A DNA stretch of 64,000 nucleotides from Holospora obtusa F1 (lineage in GTDB: Bacteria > Pseudomonadota > Alphaproteobacteria > Holosporales > Holosporaceae), in contig NZ_AWTR02000085.1 in the NCBI RefSeq assembly GCF_000469665.2, positions 1-64,000 on the forward strand, given 5' to 3'. The position numbers were made by a program, and so were the translations under genes. Positions within the stretch are counted from its first letter, which is position 1; each line of letters opens with the position of its first letter. Shown here one piece after another: positions 18,259-24,082 of this stretch. The notes under the pieces were generated by a model. That model was not told where the DNA came from. It saw only the letters and a program-made list of their open reading frames with translations, and ran no database searches.

Positions 18259-20004
18259 TTGAAGCGGTTATATTTTCAGATTCTCGAAATTTTTTTAGGT
18301 CTATGGATATATGGATGTACTCAGACAGTACCTGTCATAGATGATGGTGTTGTGCGCAGGCTGTCTCGTATGTTTCCTAATTTTTTTTCAGTATCTCAGT
18401 TTATGGGAGTTTTAAAAGATGAGGGAGTAGAAAGCGCCTCTCGGTACGTTAATAGCGCACTTCAGGTAGCTCCTAAAAACGCCGCTTTGCATTTTTTGAA
18501 TGGTTTTTTGTATGAAGAAATGGAACGTATGGGGGATAAAGGAAAAGATGCTTTGGCTGGTGTGGCTTACAAGGCTGCTTATGGCTTAGATTCCAGTAAT
18601 GCGGTGGGATGTTATTTGTATGGCTCTTATAAGTTGAAGTTAGGTGAATATGCAGAAGCGCAACAATTTTTAACATATGCACACATGCTTGACCCAAAAT
18701 CTGTTGATACATTATATGGATTAGCCTACAGCTCTTATTATTTAAAAGATCTTCCGGTCGCGCTTTCTTCTATTAAAGCTGCTTTAAAACTCAATCCGAA
18801 TAGACCAGAAATTCAAAGAGCAGCAGCGATTATTTTTTCTGCATGCGGTCAAAAAAAAGCTGCTCGTGAAGCGCTTTCGTGTTACAAAAAATTTTCTAAC
18901 GTTTCTTCGTATCAATATCAAAAGACTAAAGAACGCGTAGAACAGTGGGAAAATATTTCTGAGCTCGCACAAAAAGAATCTTCTAAATGTACGTCCATAC
19001 CTAAAACGGATTCTTCTTTAGAGAGTACTGAACCAGAAAGTTTGTTTATCGATTGTTATATCGTCTTTATGCAAAACGAAAAATTTACACTTCAAGGAAA
19101 TAATTTTTTAGAACAGTTAGCAGTAACAGTAGGGGATAGTTCTGCCTTGGCGGGATTCAGAAGATCGCTTGAAAGAGAAACCCTCACCAATGCAACATAC
19201 CCAGTTTCTGGAAGTTGGGAAAAAAGTTTTGCTTTTTCAGTAACTCCGATAAGTGCCAGTTATAGTTTAAATATTGCCAATGCACAACATAGATGTGTAG
19301 ATTTAGTTTCTCGCCCAACACTAACGACTATTGTAGGTAAAACGGCAACGTTTGAAGATGGATTAATATATTCAGCGTCTACTGAGGGATCTAACGGCGG
19401 TGCAATTATTAATATTCCTACGGGAACAAATATTTCTATTACGCCTCGTCAAATTACAGAATCTGATGAAGTGATTATGGATGTGGCTTTGGGAGCATCT
19501 ACATTTTCTGCAGCTCCTGATGCGGAAATCAGTATTTCTGATCAGTTAGTAGAGCGTACAATCGGAAGCACATCTTCTACTGCTAAAGTACTAATAGGAC
19601 AAACCATCGTTATTGCTGGATCTAATGAGCTTGCAACGTCTTCTAACGAAACAGAAATGCCGGGTTTAGGGGCTATTCCTATTATTCAGTACTTTTTTAA
19701 ACAGAGAACAGTTAATCAAGTACGAAGAAATATATTGTATTTAATTACAGTACGCCGAAGTATAGAAAAGAAAAAAAAATCTACATCACTTTCAACGCCG
19801 TCTCAAGCACAAAATTTATTAAGAAGAACGGGGTTTTGGTCTTTGGGAGAGTACACAACGCTATTTTATATTTTGCAATTTTTAGAACGATCTTCGATGT
19901 TTTCAGATTTTCGTTCAGGAGATTTGGCTGAACCAGTCAATAGTTTTTCTATTATGAGTTTAGAGGAAAAATTGTCTAAGCTTGCAAGATTTTTATATTT
20001 TTAG
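18259..20004 (+). CDS. Lipoprotein with TPR repeats and a secretin-like C-terminal domain (copy 1)
   Basis: 581 residues. A TTG at 18259 is the only start that gives an export signal: a hydrophobic stretch ending in WIYGC, a plausible lipobox with Cys20. An in-frame stop lies just upstream. Residues about 50-215 are TPR-like helix pairs. About 270-510 resemble the outer-membrane secretin domain: RPTLTTIVGKTATF, then TGTNISITPRQI, then VLIGQTIVIAG, then MPGLGAIPIIQYFF, then ILYLITVR. This order matches the family pattern. The C-terminal tail ends in LARFLYF, shared with the next gene. Secretins form outer-membrane pores for pili or protein export, but no partner genes are nearby and the N0/N1 domains usual in secretins are replaced by TPRs. 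Function is unknown. Confidence 0.7.
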   Translation: MKRLYFQILEIFLGLWIYGCTQTVPVIDDGVVRRLSRMFPNFFSVSQFMGVLKDEGVESASRYVNSALQVAPKNAALHFLNGFLYEEMERMGDKGKDALAGVAYKAAYGLDSSNAVGCYLYGSYKLKLGEYAEAQQFLTYAHMLDPKSVDTLYGLAYSSYYLKDLPVALSSIKAALKLNPNRPEIQRAAAIIFSACGQKKAAREALSCYKKFSNVSSYQYQKTKERVEQWENISELAQKESSKCTSIPKTDSSLESTEPESLFIDCYIVFMQNEKFTLQGNNFLEQLAVTVGDSSALAGFRRSLERETLTNATYPVSGSWEKSFAFSVTPISASYSLNIANAQHRCVDLVSRPTLTTIVGKTATFEDGLIYSASTEGSNGGAIINIPTGTNISITPRQITESDEVIMDVALGASTFSAAPDAEISISDQLVERTIGSTSSTAKVLIGQTIVIAGSNELATSSNETEMPGLGAIPIIQYFFKQRTVNQVRRNILYLITVRRSIEKKKKSTSLSTPSQAQNLLRRTGFWSLGEYTTLFYILQFLERSSMFSDFRSGDLAEPVNSFSIMSLEEKLSKLARFLYF

Positions 20005-20058
20005 GAGAAAAAAGTTCGTGAAATTTTTTGCAATTTTTACAAATATAGGAGCATACTA

Positions 20059-21858
20059 ATGAAAAAATTTCTTATATGTTTTTTTGGAGCAATTGTTTTT
20101 ATGACGAGCTGTGATTTTTTGACTTCTCCTAATTCTGATATAAAAAATAATTTATCAGAATTATCTAAACGTCACTGCGAATTATCAAAGGTTTGGAAAG
20201 CTATAGAACAAAATGATTTACAGCGCGCTTCTAAAGAAATGAACATTGCCCTGCAAGTATCTCCCGAAAACCCTACATACCATTTAATTAACGGTTTGAT
20301 TTACGAAAGTTCTCATGACGATGTAGATCAACAAGGACTTGCTAAATCTGCTTACCAAGCTGCTTATAATTTGGACCCCTCTCAATATCTACATGCGTAT
20401 TTGTTAGGAATCAGAGAGTTAGAAGAGCGTCAATATTTAGAAGCACAAACTCATTTAACCGGTGCGTTAATCTTAAATCCTAAAAATCCTGATATCATGT
20501 ACGCGTTAGCTTATGCTTCTTATCACTTGAAAGATTTAGTTGTAGCACGAGCTATGTTAAAGAAAGCTCTTTCTATTCGTCCGCTAGATAGAAAATTTTT
20601 AAGGGGTATGGCAATTGTTTTGGCAGCTTATCACCAATTTGATGAAGCTCGTTCTTATGCCAAAAAGTACAGAGCGCATCGTGACGTCTCTGCGGAATCT
20701 GCAAACATACTGGATCGTCGTATTCATGATTGGGAAAACGCGTATCAAAGCGCTCCAAAGTTGACTAAGATTTTGGATGAATCGTTTCTTCGCTCTAATT
20801 CGGGGCCTGATGCTGAAATGGCAGGAGATCCATCTGCAGGTAAAGGTCCTGAAAATCAAGTCGAAGATGTTACCAGTATTTTTTTTGATTGTTATTCTAT
20901 GCAACATCAAGAAGTTGAGCGTGCTTTAAGTGGGCAAAATATTATGAATGTCTTGCAAATTGTTTTGGGAACAAATACGCTAGCGTCTGTAACTCGAACT
21001 TTGGGGAGGGCGAGTTCAAGTTTTGTTTCTCCACAGCCTGTGGCCGGAAAATGGAATAAAGAGTTTGGTATGGCGGTATCTTTGTCTGGATTACGATACA
21101 GTTTAAACTTAGCTAATGCTCAAAAAGAAGTAACGAGTATTCTGGCACGTCCATCCATTCATACAATTCTTACAAAAAAAGCTACGCTATTTTCTGGAGA
21201 AAACTATACAGGGGGAGTTTCTGGTTCAACTGGAGCAGCTGCTGGAAATATCGAAGCAGGAATTTCGCTAGAAATTACGCCAGTGAGCTTATCTCCAGAA
21301 GGAGTTTTGACAATGAATATTCAATTTTCTGGAAGTTTTTTTACAGATAACCCAAACCTTAGGGCCGGGTTGGCTTCTCAGTTGTTGAGTATTACACGTT
21401 CTCGCGTAAAAACAACAGTTAAAGCTGTTATAGGTCAAACAGTTGCTCTGGGAGGTATTTATACGAAGCAAAGTGCTCAAAGTGAAAGTCGTACACCTAT
21501 TTTGGGTGATCTTCCTGTTGTGCAGTATTTTTTTGGAGGGAAACAAAATTCTTCCAGGGTTAACAGTATTATTTATTTAATTACTGCGCGGTTGGGGGGG
21601 TCTGGGCAGCAGCTTGGAAAAATAGAGCGAAAGAAAATAGAAAAAGCTAGAAAAGAGGTTCACAATCAGCTAAAAATGCGTGGACTTATGTCAATAGGAG
21701 AATTTTCGAATTGGTATTATATTTTTGGACATTTAGAAAATTCACCTTTATTTCTTAATTTTCGTTCAGGAGATCTTGAAACTCCCCAAACGGAAATTGA
21801 TAATGGAACTGATTTAGGGGAACGCTTACATCTTTTGGCTCGATTTCTTTATTTTTAA
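20059..21858 (+). CDS. Lipoprotein with TPR repeats and a secretin-like C-terminal domain (copy 2)
   Basis: 599 residues, paralogue of the gene 54 bases upstream with the same domain order. The signal peptide ends in VFMTSC, with Cys18 as the likely lipidated residue. The residue after Cys is Asp, which in E. coli retains lipoproteins in the inner membrane; copy 1 has Thr there. TPR-like repeats cover about residues 40-220. The secretin-like region follows: LARPSIHTILTKKATL, GISLEITPVSL, AVIGQTVALGG, TPILGDLPVVQYFF, IIYLITAR. The tail SIGEFSNWYYI...FRSGDLE...LARFLYF parallels copy 1 and could play the pilotin-binding role of secretin S-domains. ATG start. The two proteins may form a hetero-oligomer; this is inference. 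Confidence 0.72.
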   Translation: MKKFLICFFGAIVFMTSCDFLTSPNSDIKNNLSELSKRHCELSKVWKAIEQNDLQRASKEMNIALQVSPENPTYHLINGLIYESSHDDVDQQGLAKSAYQAAYNLDPSQYLHAYLLGIRELEERQYLEAQTHLTGALILNPKNPDIMYALAYASYHLKDLVVARAMLKKALSIRPLDRKFLRGMAIVLAAYHQFDEARSYAKKYRAHRDVSAESANILDRRIHDWENAYQSAPKLTKILDESFLRSNSGPDAEMAGDPSAGKGPENQVEDVTSIFFDCYSMQHQEVERALSGQNIMNVLQIVLGTNTLASVTRTLGRASSSFVSPQPVAGKWNKEFGMAVSLSGLRYSLNLANAQKEVTSILARPSIHTILTKKATLFSGENYTGGVSGSTGAAAGNIEAGISLEITPVSLSPEGVLTMNIQFSGSFFTDNPNLRAGLASQLLSITRSRVKTTVKAVIGQTVALGGIYTKQSAQSESRTPILGDLPVVQYFFGGKQNSSRVNSIIYLITARLGGSGQQLGKIERKKIEKARKEVHNQLKMRGLMSIGEFSNWYYIFGHLENSPLFLNFRSGDLETPQTEIDNGTDLGERLHLLARFLYF

Positions 21859-21877: not shown

Positions 21878-24082
21878 ATGGAGAACAAATTTGAAGGAAG
21901 CCTAGTGTTGGAGCTGTGTAGTGTGATTTGTGAAGCTGTGTTGTTAGAAAATATAAACTGGATTGACGTTTGTATTGCAACCAGTATTGTTTTTTTTATC
22001 GCTTTGTATTATGGAACTGGAATAGGGATTTTTTATATCAAAAAAACAGGACATATTTTTGGAATAAAACCTAAAATTTTTCAGAATAAAAAAGAAAAAT
22101 TTTACACAATGCTTCAAGAATATTGTGCACATCCAAGCGTTGCTCCATCTAAATTAAGATATGCTCAATTTTTTATTTTAAACAATGGGAGTACTGTTTT
22201 TGCATTAAGTGTTCCTTTCAAAAATAGCATCGTCATTTGGATTCCTTGCTACACTTCTTCTAAGAAAAAATGGATAAAAAGCTTGATATGGAATCACCCA
22301 ATGCACACGTGCGTCGTAAATTCCAATGGAAAGATTCAGTGGTTTAGTCGTAATTTACTGCAATGGCTTGCTTTGCATAGTTGTGATCTGTATCACTCAC
22401 CGTTTTCTGTGTTATTCAAAAATTCACCACCACGTTGGGAAAGTATAAAAAATCGTCATATCGTTATTCTTTTGAGTCGTGGAAAGGAAGATCGAGCTGC
22501 GCGAATTCATATGGAAACAGTACTGAAAGATACAAAGCTTAACATATTTTATTTTTTTCCTTGTGAGTACATGTATGCGTATGAAAATGATCAACTGTTT
22601 TTAAACGCGATTCCTTGTTCAGCAGTTTTGATAGATAGTCACGGAATAATTAGAAATTCAAATGAAGAATTTCAAGGAAAATTTTTTTATTCACATAACA
22701 AATCCACGTTCGGAGTTCCTATTCCTTATTTAACTAAAGCATCTAAGTCTAAATTGTTTACTGAATTACAGCATGCTCGTAAAAGATCGAAACCTTCTTG
22801 TGTCTTTATTGTGGAGTTAGAGCAAAAAACTGTACAAAAAGAATCTTTAGAAAAAATGTTTGCTTTTTTACAACCTTTTTCGTCTTATGATGATCACGTA
22901 CTTTTTATATTGTTACTGATGTCTGCTCCTAATATTGTTCCCCCTCAAGAACCTTTATCTCAGCGAATGGAGTTGTTAGGGCAAGTTGCCAGTGGAATTG
23001 TTCACGATTTTAACAATTTATTGACTGGAATGATTGGATTTTGTGATTTGTTGTTACAGCGTCATGGACCTGGTGATCCTTCTTTTCAAGATGTTCAACA
23101 AATTAAGCATAGTGCCGTAAGGGCTGCGCGCTTAATTCAACATTTATTAGATTTTTCTAAGTCTACTTCTAGTGCGGAACGAGTATTTTCTTTGCAAGGA
23201 TGTGTACAAAATTTAATGCCCTTAATTCAAAGAATTATTGGGCCTAAAATTTTTCTAAGTTTTCGTCATGACGCTCAAACGAGTGCTGTTTATGGAAATT
23301 TAGATAATATAGAGCAAATGATTTTAAATCTTGCGATTAATGCCAGAGACGCAATGCCTAATGGAGGATCCTTAGATTTTACGCTCGGTACTTTTGTTGC
23401 AAAATCTTCTCAAACGCTTACGCAAGGCGTGCTAGAAATGGGACAGTATGTTTATCTTGAAGTAAAAGATACGGGCTCAGGGATTCCTCCAGACATTTTT
23501 CCGTATATTTTTAACGCTTTTGTTTCTTCTAAAGAACAAGGTACGGGGCTTGGACTTTCAAATATTTCAAAAACTGTTACAGAACTCAAAGGAGGAATTC
23601 AGGTTCAAACAGAAAAGGGTCGTGGAAGTACATTTTCCATTTATTTACCTCTTCATAAAGGAGAGATTGATTCAAGAAATCAAGAATCTCAAAAATCTTT
23701 GGTAGAACCTAATAAAACAGGAGAAAAAATTCTTTTGGTAGAAGATGAGGATCCCATTCGTCTTTTTTCGTCAAGAGTTTTGCGAGAAAAAGGATACGAA
23801 GTAGTTGAAGCAAGAGACGGGATTCAAGCATTGCAAACCATGAAAACACACGAAGACATTATGCTGATTATTACCGACGTTATGATGCCGGGAATTGATG
23901 GGCCCTCACTAATTTCGGAAGTGCAAAAGCATACTCCGCATATTAAAGCACTTTTTGTTTCTGGATACCCCAAAGAATCTATTGAATTATCTGGGGCTTC
24001 TGCTAATCGATATTTTTTACAAAAACCTTTTTCTCTTTCTGAATTGGTTGCAAAAATTCAAGAAATTTTAAAAAAAAATTAA
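21878..24082 (+). CDS. cckA: CckA-type hybrid histidine kinase
   Basis: 734 residues. One clear transmembrane helix (about 30-54) precedes a long sensor region of about 300 residues that I do not recognise, possibly PAS-like. The kinase core has the phospho-acceptor His376 in GIVHDFNNLLTGMIGF, the N-box NLAINARDAMPNGG and G-boxes DTGSGIPP and GTGLGLS. A C-terminal receiver has the acidic pair VEDED, phospho-acceptor D667 in ITDVMMPG and the LQKPFS lysine. HDFNNLL plus one receiver is the hallmark of CckA, which in alphaproteobacteria passes phosphate through ChpT to CtrA and CpdR to control division. ChpT and CtrA are not in this window. Confidence 0.88.
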   Translation: MENKFEGSLVLELCSVICEAVLLENINWIDVCIATSIVFFIALYYGTGIGIFYIKKTGHIFGIKPKIFQNKKEKFYTMLQEYCAHPSVAPSKLRYAQFFILNNGSTVFALSVPFKNSIVIWIPCYTSSKKKWIKSLIWNHPMHTCVVNSNGKIQWFSRNLLQWLALHSCDLYHSPFSVLFKNSPPRWESIKNRHIVILLSRGKEDRAARIHMETVLKDTKLNIFYFFPCEYMYAYENDQLFLNAIPCSAVLIDSHGIIRNSNEEFQGKFFYSHNKSTFGVPIPYLTKASKSKLFTELQHARKRSKPSCVFIVELEQKTVQKESLEKMFAFLQPFSSYDDHVLFILLLMSAPNIVPPQEPLSQRMELLGQVASGIVHDFNNLLTGMIGFCDLLLQRHGPGDPSFQDVQQIKHSAVRAARLIQHLLDFSKSTSSAERVFSLQGCVQNLMPLIQRIIGPKIFLSFRHDAQTSAVYGNLDNIEQMILNLAINARDAMPNGGSLDFTLGTFVAKSSQTLTQGVLEMGQYVYLEVKDTGSGIPPDIFPYIFNAFVSSKEQGTGLGLSNISKTVTELKGGIQVQTEKGRGSTFSIYLPLHKGEIDSRNQESQKSLVEPNKTGEKILLVEDEDPIRLFSSRVLREKGYEVVEARDGIQALQTMKTHEDIMLIITDVMMPGIDGPSLISEVQKHTPHIKALFVSGYPKESIELSGASANRYFLQKPFSLSELVAKIQEILKKN

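What the first reader, a model, noticed from the sequence alone, without database searches (positions are those of the whole stretch)
18259..21858. Tandem TPR-secretin lipoproteins without secretion partners
Two adjacent paralogues each combine a lipobox, TPR repeats and a secretin-like C-terminal region with the order of typical secretin signatures, plus a shared C-terminal tail (LARFLYF). Standard secretins have N0/N1/N2 ring domains before the pore; here TPRs occupy that place. Duplication suggests a hetero-oligomeric pore or one pore with a lipoprotein partner. No ATPase, pseudopilin or platform gene is in view, so this may be an undescribed outer-membrane channel or adaptor.
Basis: partly seen in the sequence, partly recalled or inferred. 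Interest (0 to 1): 0.75.

Follow-up and report, generated by a model that had tools for sequence, protein, structure and literature searches.

The report
Stand-alone lipoprotein-TPR secretins in Holospora
Two neighbouring genes in a Holospora symbiont of Paramecium encode outer-membrane pore proteins that appear to carry their own built-in assembly helper, and they belong to a previously unremarked family that some bacteria keep without any of the usual secretion machinery.

Summary
Both genes (18259-20004, 20059-21858) encode a lipobox, about 200 aa of TPRs, a genuine secretin core (PF00263, E 7e-20 and 7e-26, about 3x the curated cut-off) and a conserved C-terminal tail. No N0-N3 ring domain is detectable. 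The window lies in a Holospora genome (a Holospora undulata orthologue has 78% identity to B).

"No secretion partners" is true of the window, not of the genome. Elsewhere it has GspE/PilB-like and GspF/PilC-like genes and its own MshL-like secretin. That machine therefore already has a pore, and the TPR-secretins are surplus to it.

They form a discrete family: 28 of 386 sampled class genomes, plus other classes of the phylum, and all 10 genomes of the order examined. One 99%-complete relative has a TPR-secretin as its only secretin, with no platform protein and no secretion ATPase. In several lineages the partner genes encode exported pentapeptide-repeat, tectonin or ricin-lectin proteins.

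My reading is a pilotin-secretin fusion. The TPR lipoprotein part (PilW/PilF-like) delivers the pore to the outer membrane, and the C-terminal tip probably docks in a TPR groove, as RcpA does in TadD. AlphaFold models were too poor to test this. New variant of a known kind.

The parts
18259..20004 (+). TPR-secretin A, 581 aa lipoprotein (TTG start)
   Evidence: ORF; PF00263 E 7e-20 and TPR_19; dN/dS 0.096 against H. undulata
18259..18318 (+). A: signal peptide with lipobox, IYG-C20
   Evidence: sequence; lipobox Cys aligned in 34 of 35 family members
18385..18963 (+). A: TPR domain, PilW/PilF-like
   Evidence: TPR hits; PilW matched by 18 of 18 family TPR domains; domain boundary from the family alignment
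19045..19752 (+). A: secretin core, first core strand (DCY) through PF00263
19753..20001 (+). A: conserved C-terminal tail (FRSGDL ... LARFLYF-COOH)
20059..21858 (+). TPR-secretin B, 599 aa lipoprotein
   Evidence: ORF; PF00263 E 7.3e-26; dN/dS 0.078
20059..20112 (+). B: signal peptide with lipobox, MTS-C18 (Asp at +2 in this species)
20176..20748 (+). B: TPR domain; full-length PilW/PilF-like match
   Evidence: TIGR02521 E 2.5e-13, residues 11-243 against 5-233 of 234; TPR part is the best-predicted part of the model
20881..21594 (+). B: secretin core, first core strand through PF00263
21595..21855 (+). B: conserved C-terminal tail (FRSGDL ... LARFLYF-COOH)
   Evidence: Asp572 in 35 of 35 members; 32 of 39 members end in Phe or Tyr
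21878..24082 (+). CckA-like hybrid histidine kinase, 19 bp downstream of B; probably the same transcript; linkage recurs in G386
   Evidence: NCBIfam CckA E 2e-104; adjacency in Holospora loci and in L104

Best explanation
A and B are members of a distinct secretin family in which a TPR lipoprotein pilotin (PilW/PilF/TadD kind) is fused in front of a minimal secretin core. Shown: the domain order, the missing N0-N3 ring domains, the conserved tail, the phylum-wide distribution, and occurrence in genomes without a type II, type IV pilus or Tad platform. Inferred: the lipid anchor and TPR part carry the chain to the outer membrane, so no separate pilotin is needed. The conserved C-terminal tip docks in a TPR groove of the same or a neighbouring subunit, and this seeds a ring whose secretin cores form the pore. 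Also inferred: the pore works without an inner-membrane engine, passing or displaying Sec-exported proteins (in relatives, the co-encoded pentapeptide-repeat, tectonin or ricin-lectin proteins). In Holospora the two long-separated paralogues may form a mixed ring. The Holospora substrate is unknown.
For: Secretin core above cut-off in both proteins and matched in 18 of 18 members. The profile aligns across the GspD, PilQ and MxiD core, including the conserved PlLgdiP...F region. No N-domain in 18 members, against a positive control in the same genome. Lipobox Cys in 34 of 35. PilW matched by 18 of 18 TPR domains, and over its full length in B. Tail: Asp572 in 35 of 35, 32 of 39 end in Phe or Tyr. 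Precedent: the last four residues of the Tad secretin RcpA bind the TPR groove of the lipoprotein TadD and are essential for secretin formation (PMC10499894). Discreteness: hits run from 1e-127 to 1e-41, nearly all across the model including the tail, then drop to 3e-25 and core only. Engine-less relatives: G111 (99% complete) has one secretin, a TPR-secretin, with no PF00482 and no PF00437; G112, G139 and G382 have no PF00482 and only VirB11-sized PF00437 proteins. Surplus in Holospora: its GspE/GspF machine has its own MshL-like secretin. Partners: an exported CDLRY pentapeptide protein immediately downstream in 8 loci from two classes; tectonin proteins on both sides in 3 loci; a 2384 aa ricin-lectin protein next door in L108.
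Against: No structure or experiment. AlphaFold failed on the secretin half with only four permitted rows. The TPR match to PilW is far below its curated cut-off (50 against 154 bits) and many TPR families match. In the 386-genome sample the family co-occurs with MshL-like secretins more often than expected (14 of 28 against 45 of 358, Fisher p 7e-6; p 0.03 without the reduced symbiont genomes), which would fit an accessory role, though related genomes are not independent. In Holospora no exported partner gene sits next to A or B. B has Asp at +2, an inner-membrane retention signal in E. coli (own knowledge), though not in its orthologues.
Confidence: 0.5

Rival explanations
1. A and B are accessory secretins, or pilotin-like outer-membrane parts, of the genome's MSHA/type II-like machine (GspE/F, PilM-like and MshL-like genes on other contigs), for example helping the MshL-like secretin assemble or forming mixed rings with it.
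For: Both TPR-secretin and the MshL/GspF set persist in strongly reduced genomes of 0.6-1.1 Mb; statistical co-occurrence. The MSHA systems have a TPR protein MshN, the only TadD homologue recognised by sequence in that filament family (PMC10499894), and the Holospora E/F operon shows no obvious such gene.
Against: Half of the TPR-secretin genomes in the sample lack an MshL-like secretin at the threshold used, and several nearly complete ones lack any platform protein. No linkage to pilus genes was recognised in any of about 40 loci read. No prepilin peptidase was found in the window's genome, although that genome is only 89% complete.
Confidence: 0.25
2. They are not pores but lipid-anchored periplasmic scaffolds: a secretin-derived ring or fragment that lost membrane insertion and serves as an adaptor or assembly factor.
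For: Extreme N-terminal rebuilding; A scores lower than B on the secretin model; Asp at +2 of B in this species.
Against: The full core is kept in all 18 members, including the PlLgdiP motif; strong purifying selection on both genes.
Confidence: 0.15
3. A TPR-plus-pore exporter of polysaccharide, analogous to PgaA, BcsC or AlgK/AlgE.
For: Same logic of periplasmic TPRs joined to an outer-membrane channel; weak TPR matches to PgaA, VpsP and VexE; lectin-type partner genes in some relatives.
Against: Those systems use single-chain porin-like barrels, not secretins (own knowledge). No polysaccharide synthase recurs next to the family.
Confidence: 0.08

Closest known systems
RcpA-TadD (Tad pilus secretin and its TPR lipoprotein pilotin)
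   Same: Secretin core plus TPR lipoprotein of PilF fold; in RcpA-TadD the secretin's last residues bind the TPR groove, and here the extreme C-terminus is also conserved
   Different: Two separate genes and a VirB9-like N-domain there; one fused chain with no N-domain here; no Tad genes nearby; the tip is aromatic (FLYF) here, whereas RcpA uses L414, S415 and D416
PilQ with PilF/PilW/Tgl (type IVa pilus)
   Same: PilQ and PilW are among the best models for the two halves of B
   Different: Separate genes; PilQ has AMIN/N0/N1 domains (own knowledge); scores far under curated cut-offs
HxcQ-type liposecretin (Pseudomonas type II system; from own knowledge)
   Same: Secretin that is itself a lipoprotein and so pilots itself
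   Different: HxcQ keeps N0-N3 and belongs to a complete type II system; no TPRs
MshL-like secretin of the same genome (contig 17, 533 aa)
   Same: Lipobox-like N-terminus and secretin core
   Different: Has Secretin_N_2 and an STN-like region; no TPR
Filamentous phage protein IV
   Same: Weak core match (PHROG 1012, E 2e-13 for B); a secretin working outside type II systems and type IV pili
   Different: Has N0/N1, is phage-borne and works with a phage ATPase (own knowledge)

Membership tests
Secretin superfamily (PF00263) | secretin core above the curated cut-off | tested here: met
   71.7 and 91.2 bits against 27.5; 18 of 18 members match
Secretin superfamily (PF00263) | N0/N1-type periplasmic ring domains before the core | tested here: not met
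   no STN or Secretin_N match; positive control in the same genome
Secretin superfamily (PF00263) | 12- to 15-mer double beta-barrel ring in the outer membrane | not testable with these tools
   AlphaFold models too poor; no multimer prediction available
GspD / PilQ / MshL / SctC equivalogs | curated NCBIfam score | tested here: not met
   best for B is PilQ, 70 bits against 284; MshL 47 against 250; GspD 46 against 351; SctC 53 against 238
Type II, type IV pilus or Tad secretin | encoded with, or at least alongside, an ATPase (PF00437) and platform protein (PF00482) | tested here: inconclusive
   present elsewhere in this genome with a secretin of their own; both absent in the 99%-complete relative G111
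PilF/PilW/TadD TPR pilotin | lipobox followed by five or six TPRs | tested here: met
   11 helices over residues 25-231 in the model
PilF/PilW/TadD TPR pilotin | free-standing protein above the PilW curated cut-off | tested here: not met
   fused to a secretin; 50 bits against 154
Liposecretin (HxcQ type) | secretin with its own lipobox | tested here: met
   Cys in 34 of 35 members; lipidation itself not tested
Liposecretin (HxcQ type) | part of a type II system with N0-N3 | tested here: not met
   no N-domains; not encoded in a type II locus

The most novel reading that the evidence does not exclude
A solo secretin route: a self-piloting TPR-secretin that exports or displays co-encoded, Sec-exported repeat or lectin proteins with no inner-membrane ATPase or platform. 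It would be an undescribed outer-membrane secretion system spread over Pseudomonadota and kept in the small genomes of intracellular symbionts.
Probability: 0.35. Interest if true: 0.85.

Novelty: new variant of a known kind. Interest (0 to 1): 0.62.

Why it matters
Secretins are normally treated as the outer gate of machines powered from the inner membrane. A widespread secretin family that carries its own pilotin-like part, lacks the docking rings for such machines and occurs in genomes without them makes it directly testable whether a secretin can work alone. The fusion would also show in a single chain how a pilotin and a secretin pair. For Holospora, which secretes a 63-kDa protein into the host nucleus by a route so far linked only to a reported type II system (PMC9866348), it adds candidate exit pores.

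Tried and rejected
(3) Conserved neighbours as a functional clue within Holosporales: apart from cckA, only housekeeping genes recur. (4) "No partners at all": rejected for the organism. (5) Phage origin: only a weak core match to protein IV; the family tree largely follows the bacterial families. (6) Chance or pseudogene: rejected on dN/dS and family conservation. (7) Papers: no description of a TPR-secretin fusion found in the open-access library; subscription papers are not covered. (8) Prepilin peptidase in the own genome: none found. Pilin-like N-termini: two hits below cut-off, not followed.

Full report
What is there. The two ORFs are real, adjacent (54 bp apart) and on the same strand. 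Each has a short signal peptide with a lipobox Cys (C20 in A, C18 in B), about 200 residues of TPRs, a linker, a secretin core and a tail of about 85 residues. PF00263 is passed by a wide margin, and both proteins match solved secretins (GspD, PilQ, InvG, MxiD) by sequence. The family profile aligns across the core of solved GspD, PilQ and MxiD chains. The first strand of the core ("DCY..", B residue 277) lies straight after the TPR linker, so no space is left for N0-N3; none is found in 18 members, while the genome's ordinary secretin shows one. Purifying selection acts on both genes.

Where it is. The closest named record is Holospora undulata (78% identity over nearly all of B, with the same A-B-kinase order). 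The window's genome is 1.33 Mb in 91 contigs and 89% complete. It has three secretins: A, B and an MshL-like one of 533 aa on another contig. A PilB/GspE-like ATPase, a GspF/PilC-like platform protein and further genes sit together on contig 14. A published study cites a type II system in H. obtusa (PMC9866348).

Family. A profile of the secretin-plus-tail region separates sharply from all other secretins. In 386 genomes of the class, 28 have hits of about 1e-41 or better, nearly all over the full model; the next hit is 3e-25 and confined to the core. All ten genomes of the order examined carry one or two copies, as do four 0.6-0.8 Mb genomes of family f20. A second sample of 398 genomes of the phylum found it in other classes too. 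Across 35 members the lipobox Cys is aligned in 34, and Tyr155, Arg221, Trp225, Gly292, Asn294, Tyr347, Asn353, Pro480, Pro486, Leu538 and Asp572 of B are invariant. Of 39 members, 32 end in Phe or Tyr.

Duplication. In a maximum-likelihood tree the window's A groups with A-type genes of another Holospora and of another genus (G004), and B with the B-type genes of the same two, each at 100/99 support, with the same gene order in G004; the split is therefore older than the genus. G369, in another family, has its own pair that are each other's nearest relatives (95/79). Repeated tandem pairing fits, but does not prove, mixed rings.

Is it an orphan? Of 33 genomes with the family checked for PF00482, six have none: G210, G111, G112, G125, G139 and G382. 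In all of these the only secretins are TPR-secretins (G125's second hit is a fragment that also matches this family). G111 also has no PF00437; G112, G139 and G382 have only VirB11-sized PF00437 proteins. G125 is only 80% complete and G210 has a TadA-like gene with a stop, so I rest the claim mainly on G111, G112, G139 and G382. Against this, half of the family's genomes in the class sample also carry an MshL-like secretin, more than expected; related genomes inflate that figure.

Neighbours. In Holospora the pair is followed after 19 bp by a CckA-like kinase; the same two genes are divergent neighbours in G386, and the meaning is unclear. In free-living relatives from two classes, eight loci have an exported pentapeptide-repeat protein with a CDLRY motif immediately downstream on the same strand, often with an exported solute-binding-type protein as well. 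Three other loci have exported tectonin-repeat proteins on both sides. L108 and L123 have very large neighbouring proteins beginning with a signal-like stretch (2384 and at least 2918 aa), the former with ricin-type lectin domains. These are candidate substrates or surface partners; this is inference from gene order.

Mechanism. The TPR half most consistently matches PilW, over its full length in B, but generic TPR similarity is high. In the Tad system the TPR lipoprotein TadD binds the last residues of the secretin RcpA in its groove, and a four-residue truncation abolishes assembly (PMC10499894). The present family looks like that pair fused into one chain with its C-terminal tip conserved. 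I therefore propose self-piloting plus tail-in-groove ring assembly (inferred, about 0.5), and action apart from a pilus or type II engine (inferred, moderately likely).

Limits. No usable structure model was obtained; the allowed alignment had four rows. Export function, lipidation, membrane location and oligomerisation are untested.

Noticed in passing
window 21878-24082: CckA-like hybrid kinase (734 aa) directly after B; it scores well below the curated CckA cut-off (350 against 1000 bits). Linkage of cckA to a TPR-secretin recurs as divergent neighbours in G386 (L104:4126-8997).
   Followed up: partly
L096-L100, L121, L122, L126: An exported pentapeptide-repeat protein with a CDLRY motif sits immediately downstream of the TPR-secretin in eight loci from two classes, often with a TAXI or family-3 solute-binding protein: an operon for which I found no description.
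   Followed up: partly
L101, L125, L127: The TPR-secretin is flanked on both sides by exported tectonin-repeat proteins of about 760-945 aa, related between loci.
   Followed up: partly
L108:836-7990; L123:1-8756: Very large proteins with signal-like N-termini next to TPR-secretins (2384 aa with ricin-type lectin domains; at least 2918 aa with no Pfam match), similar to each other only over about 170 aa.
   Followed up: no
L015:11491-16501 and L016:10448-12049: The pilus/type II-like gene set of this Holospora is split over different contigs, and no prepilin peptidase was found in the 89%-complete assembly.
   Followed up: partly
window 20110-20115: B has Asp at position +2 after the lipobox Cys in this species, but Asn in H. 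undulata and Thr in another Holospora; in E. coli Asp would keep a lipoprotein in the inner membrane.
   Followed up: no
L099:8289-10128, L105:8328-10364, L112, L096: Some relatives have the TPR-secretin gene broken or frameshifted between the TPR and secretin halves, either decay or assembly error.
   Followed up: no
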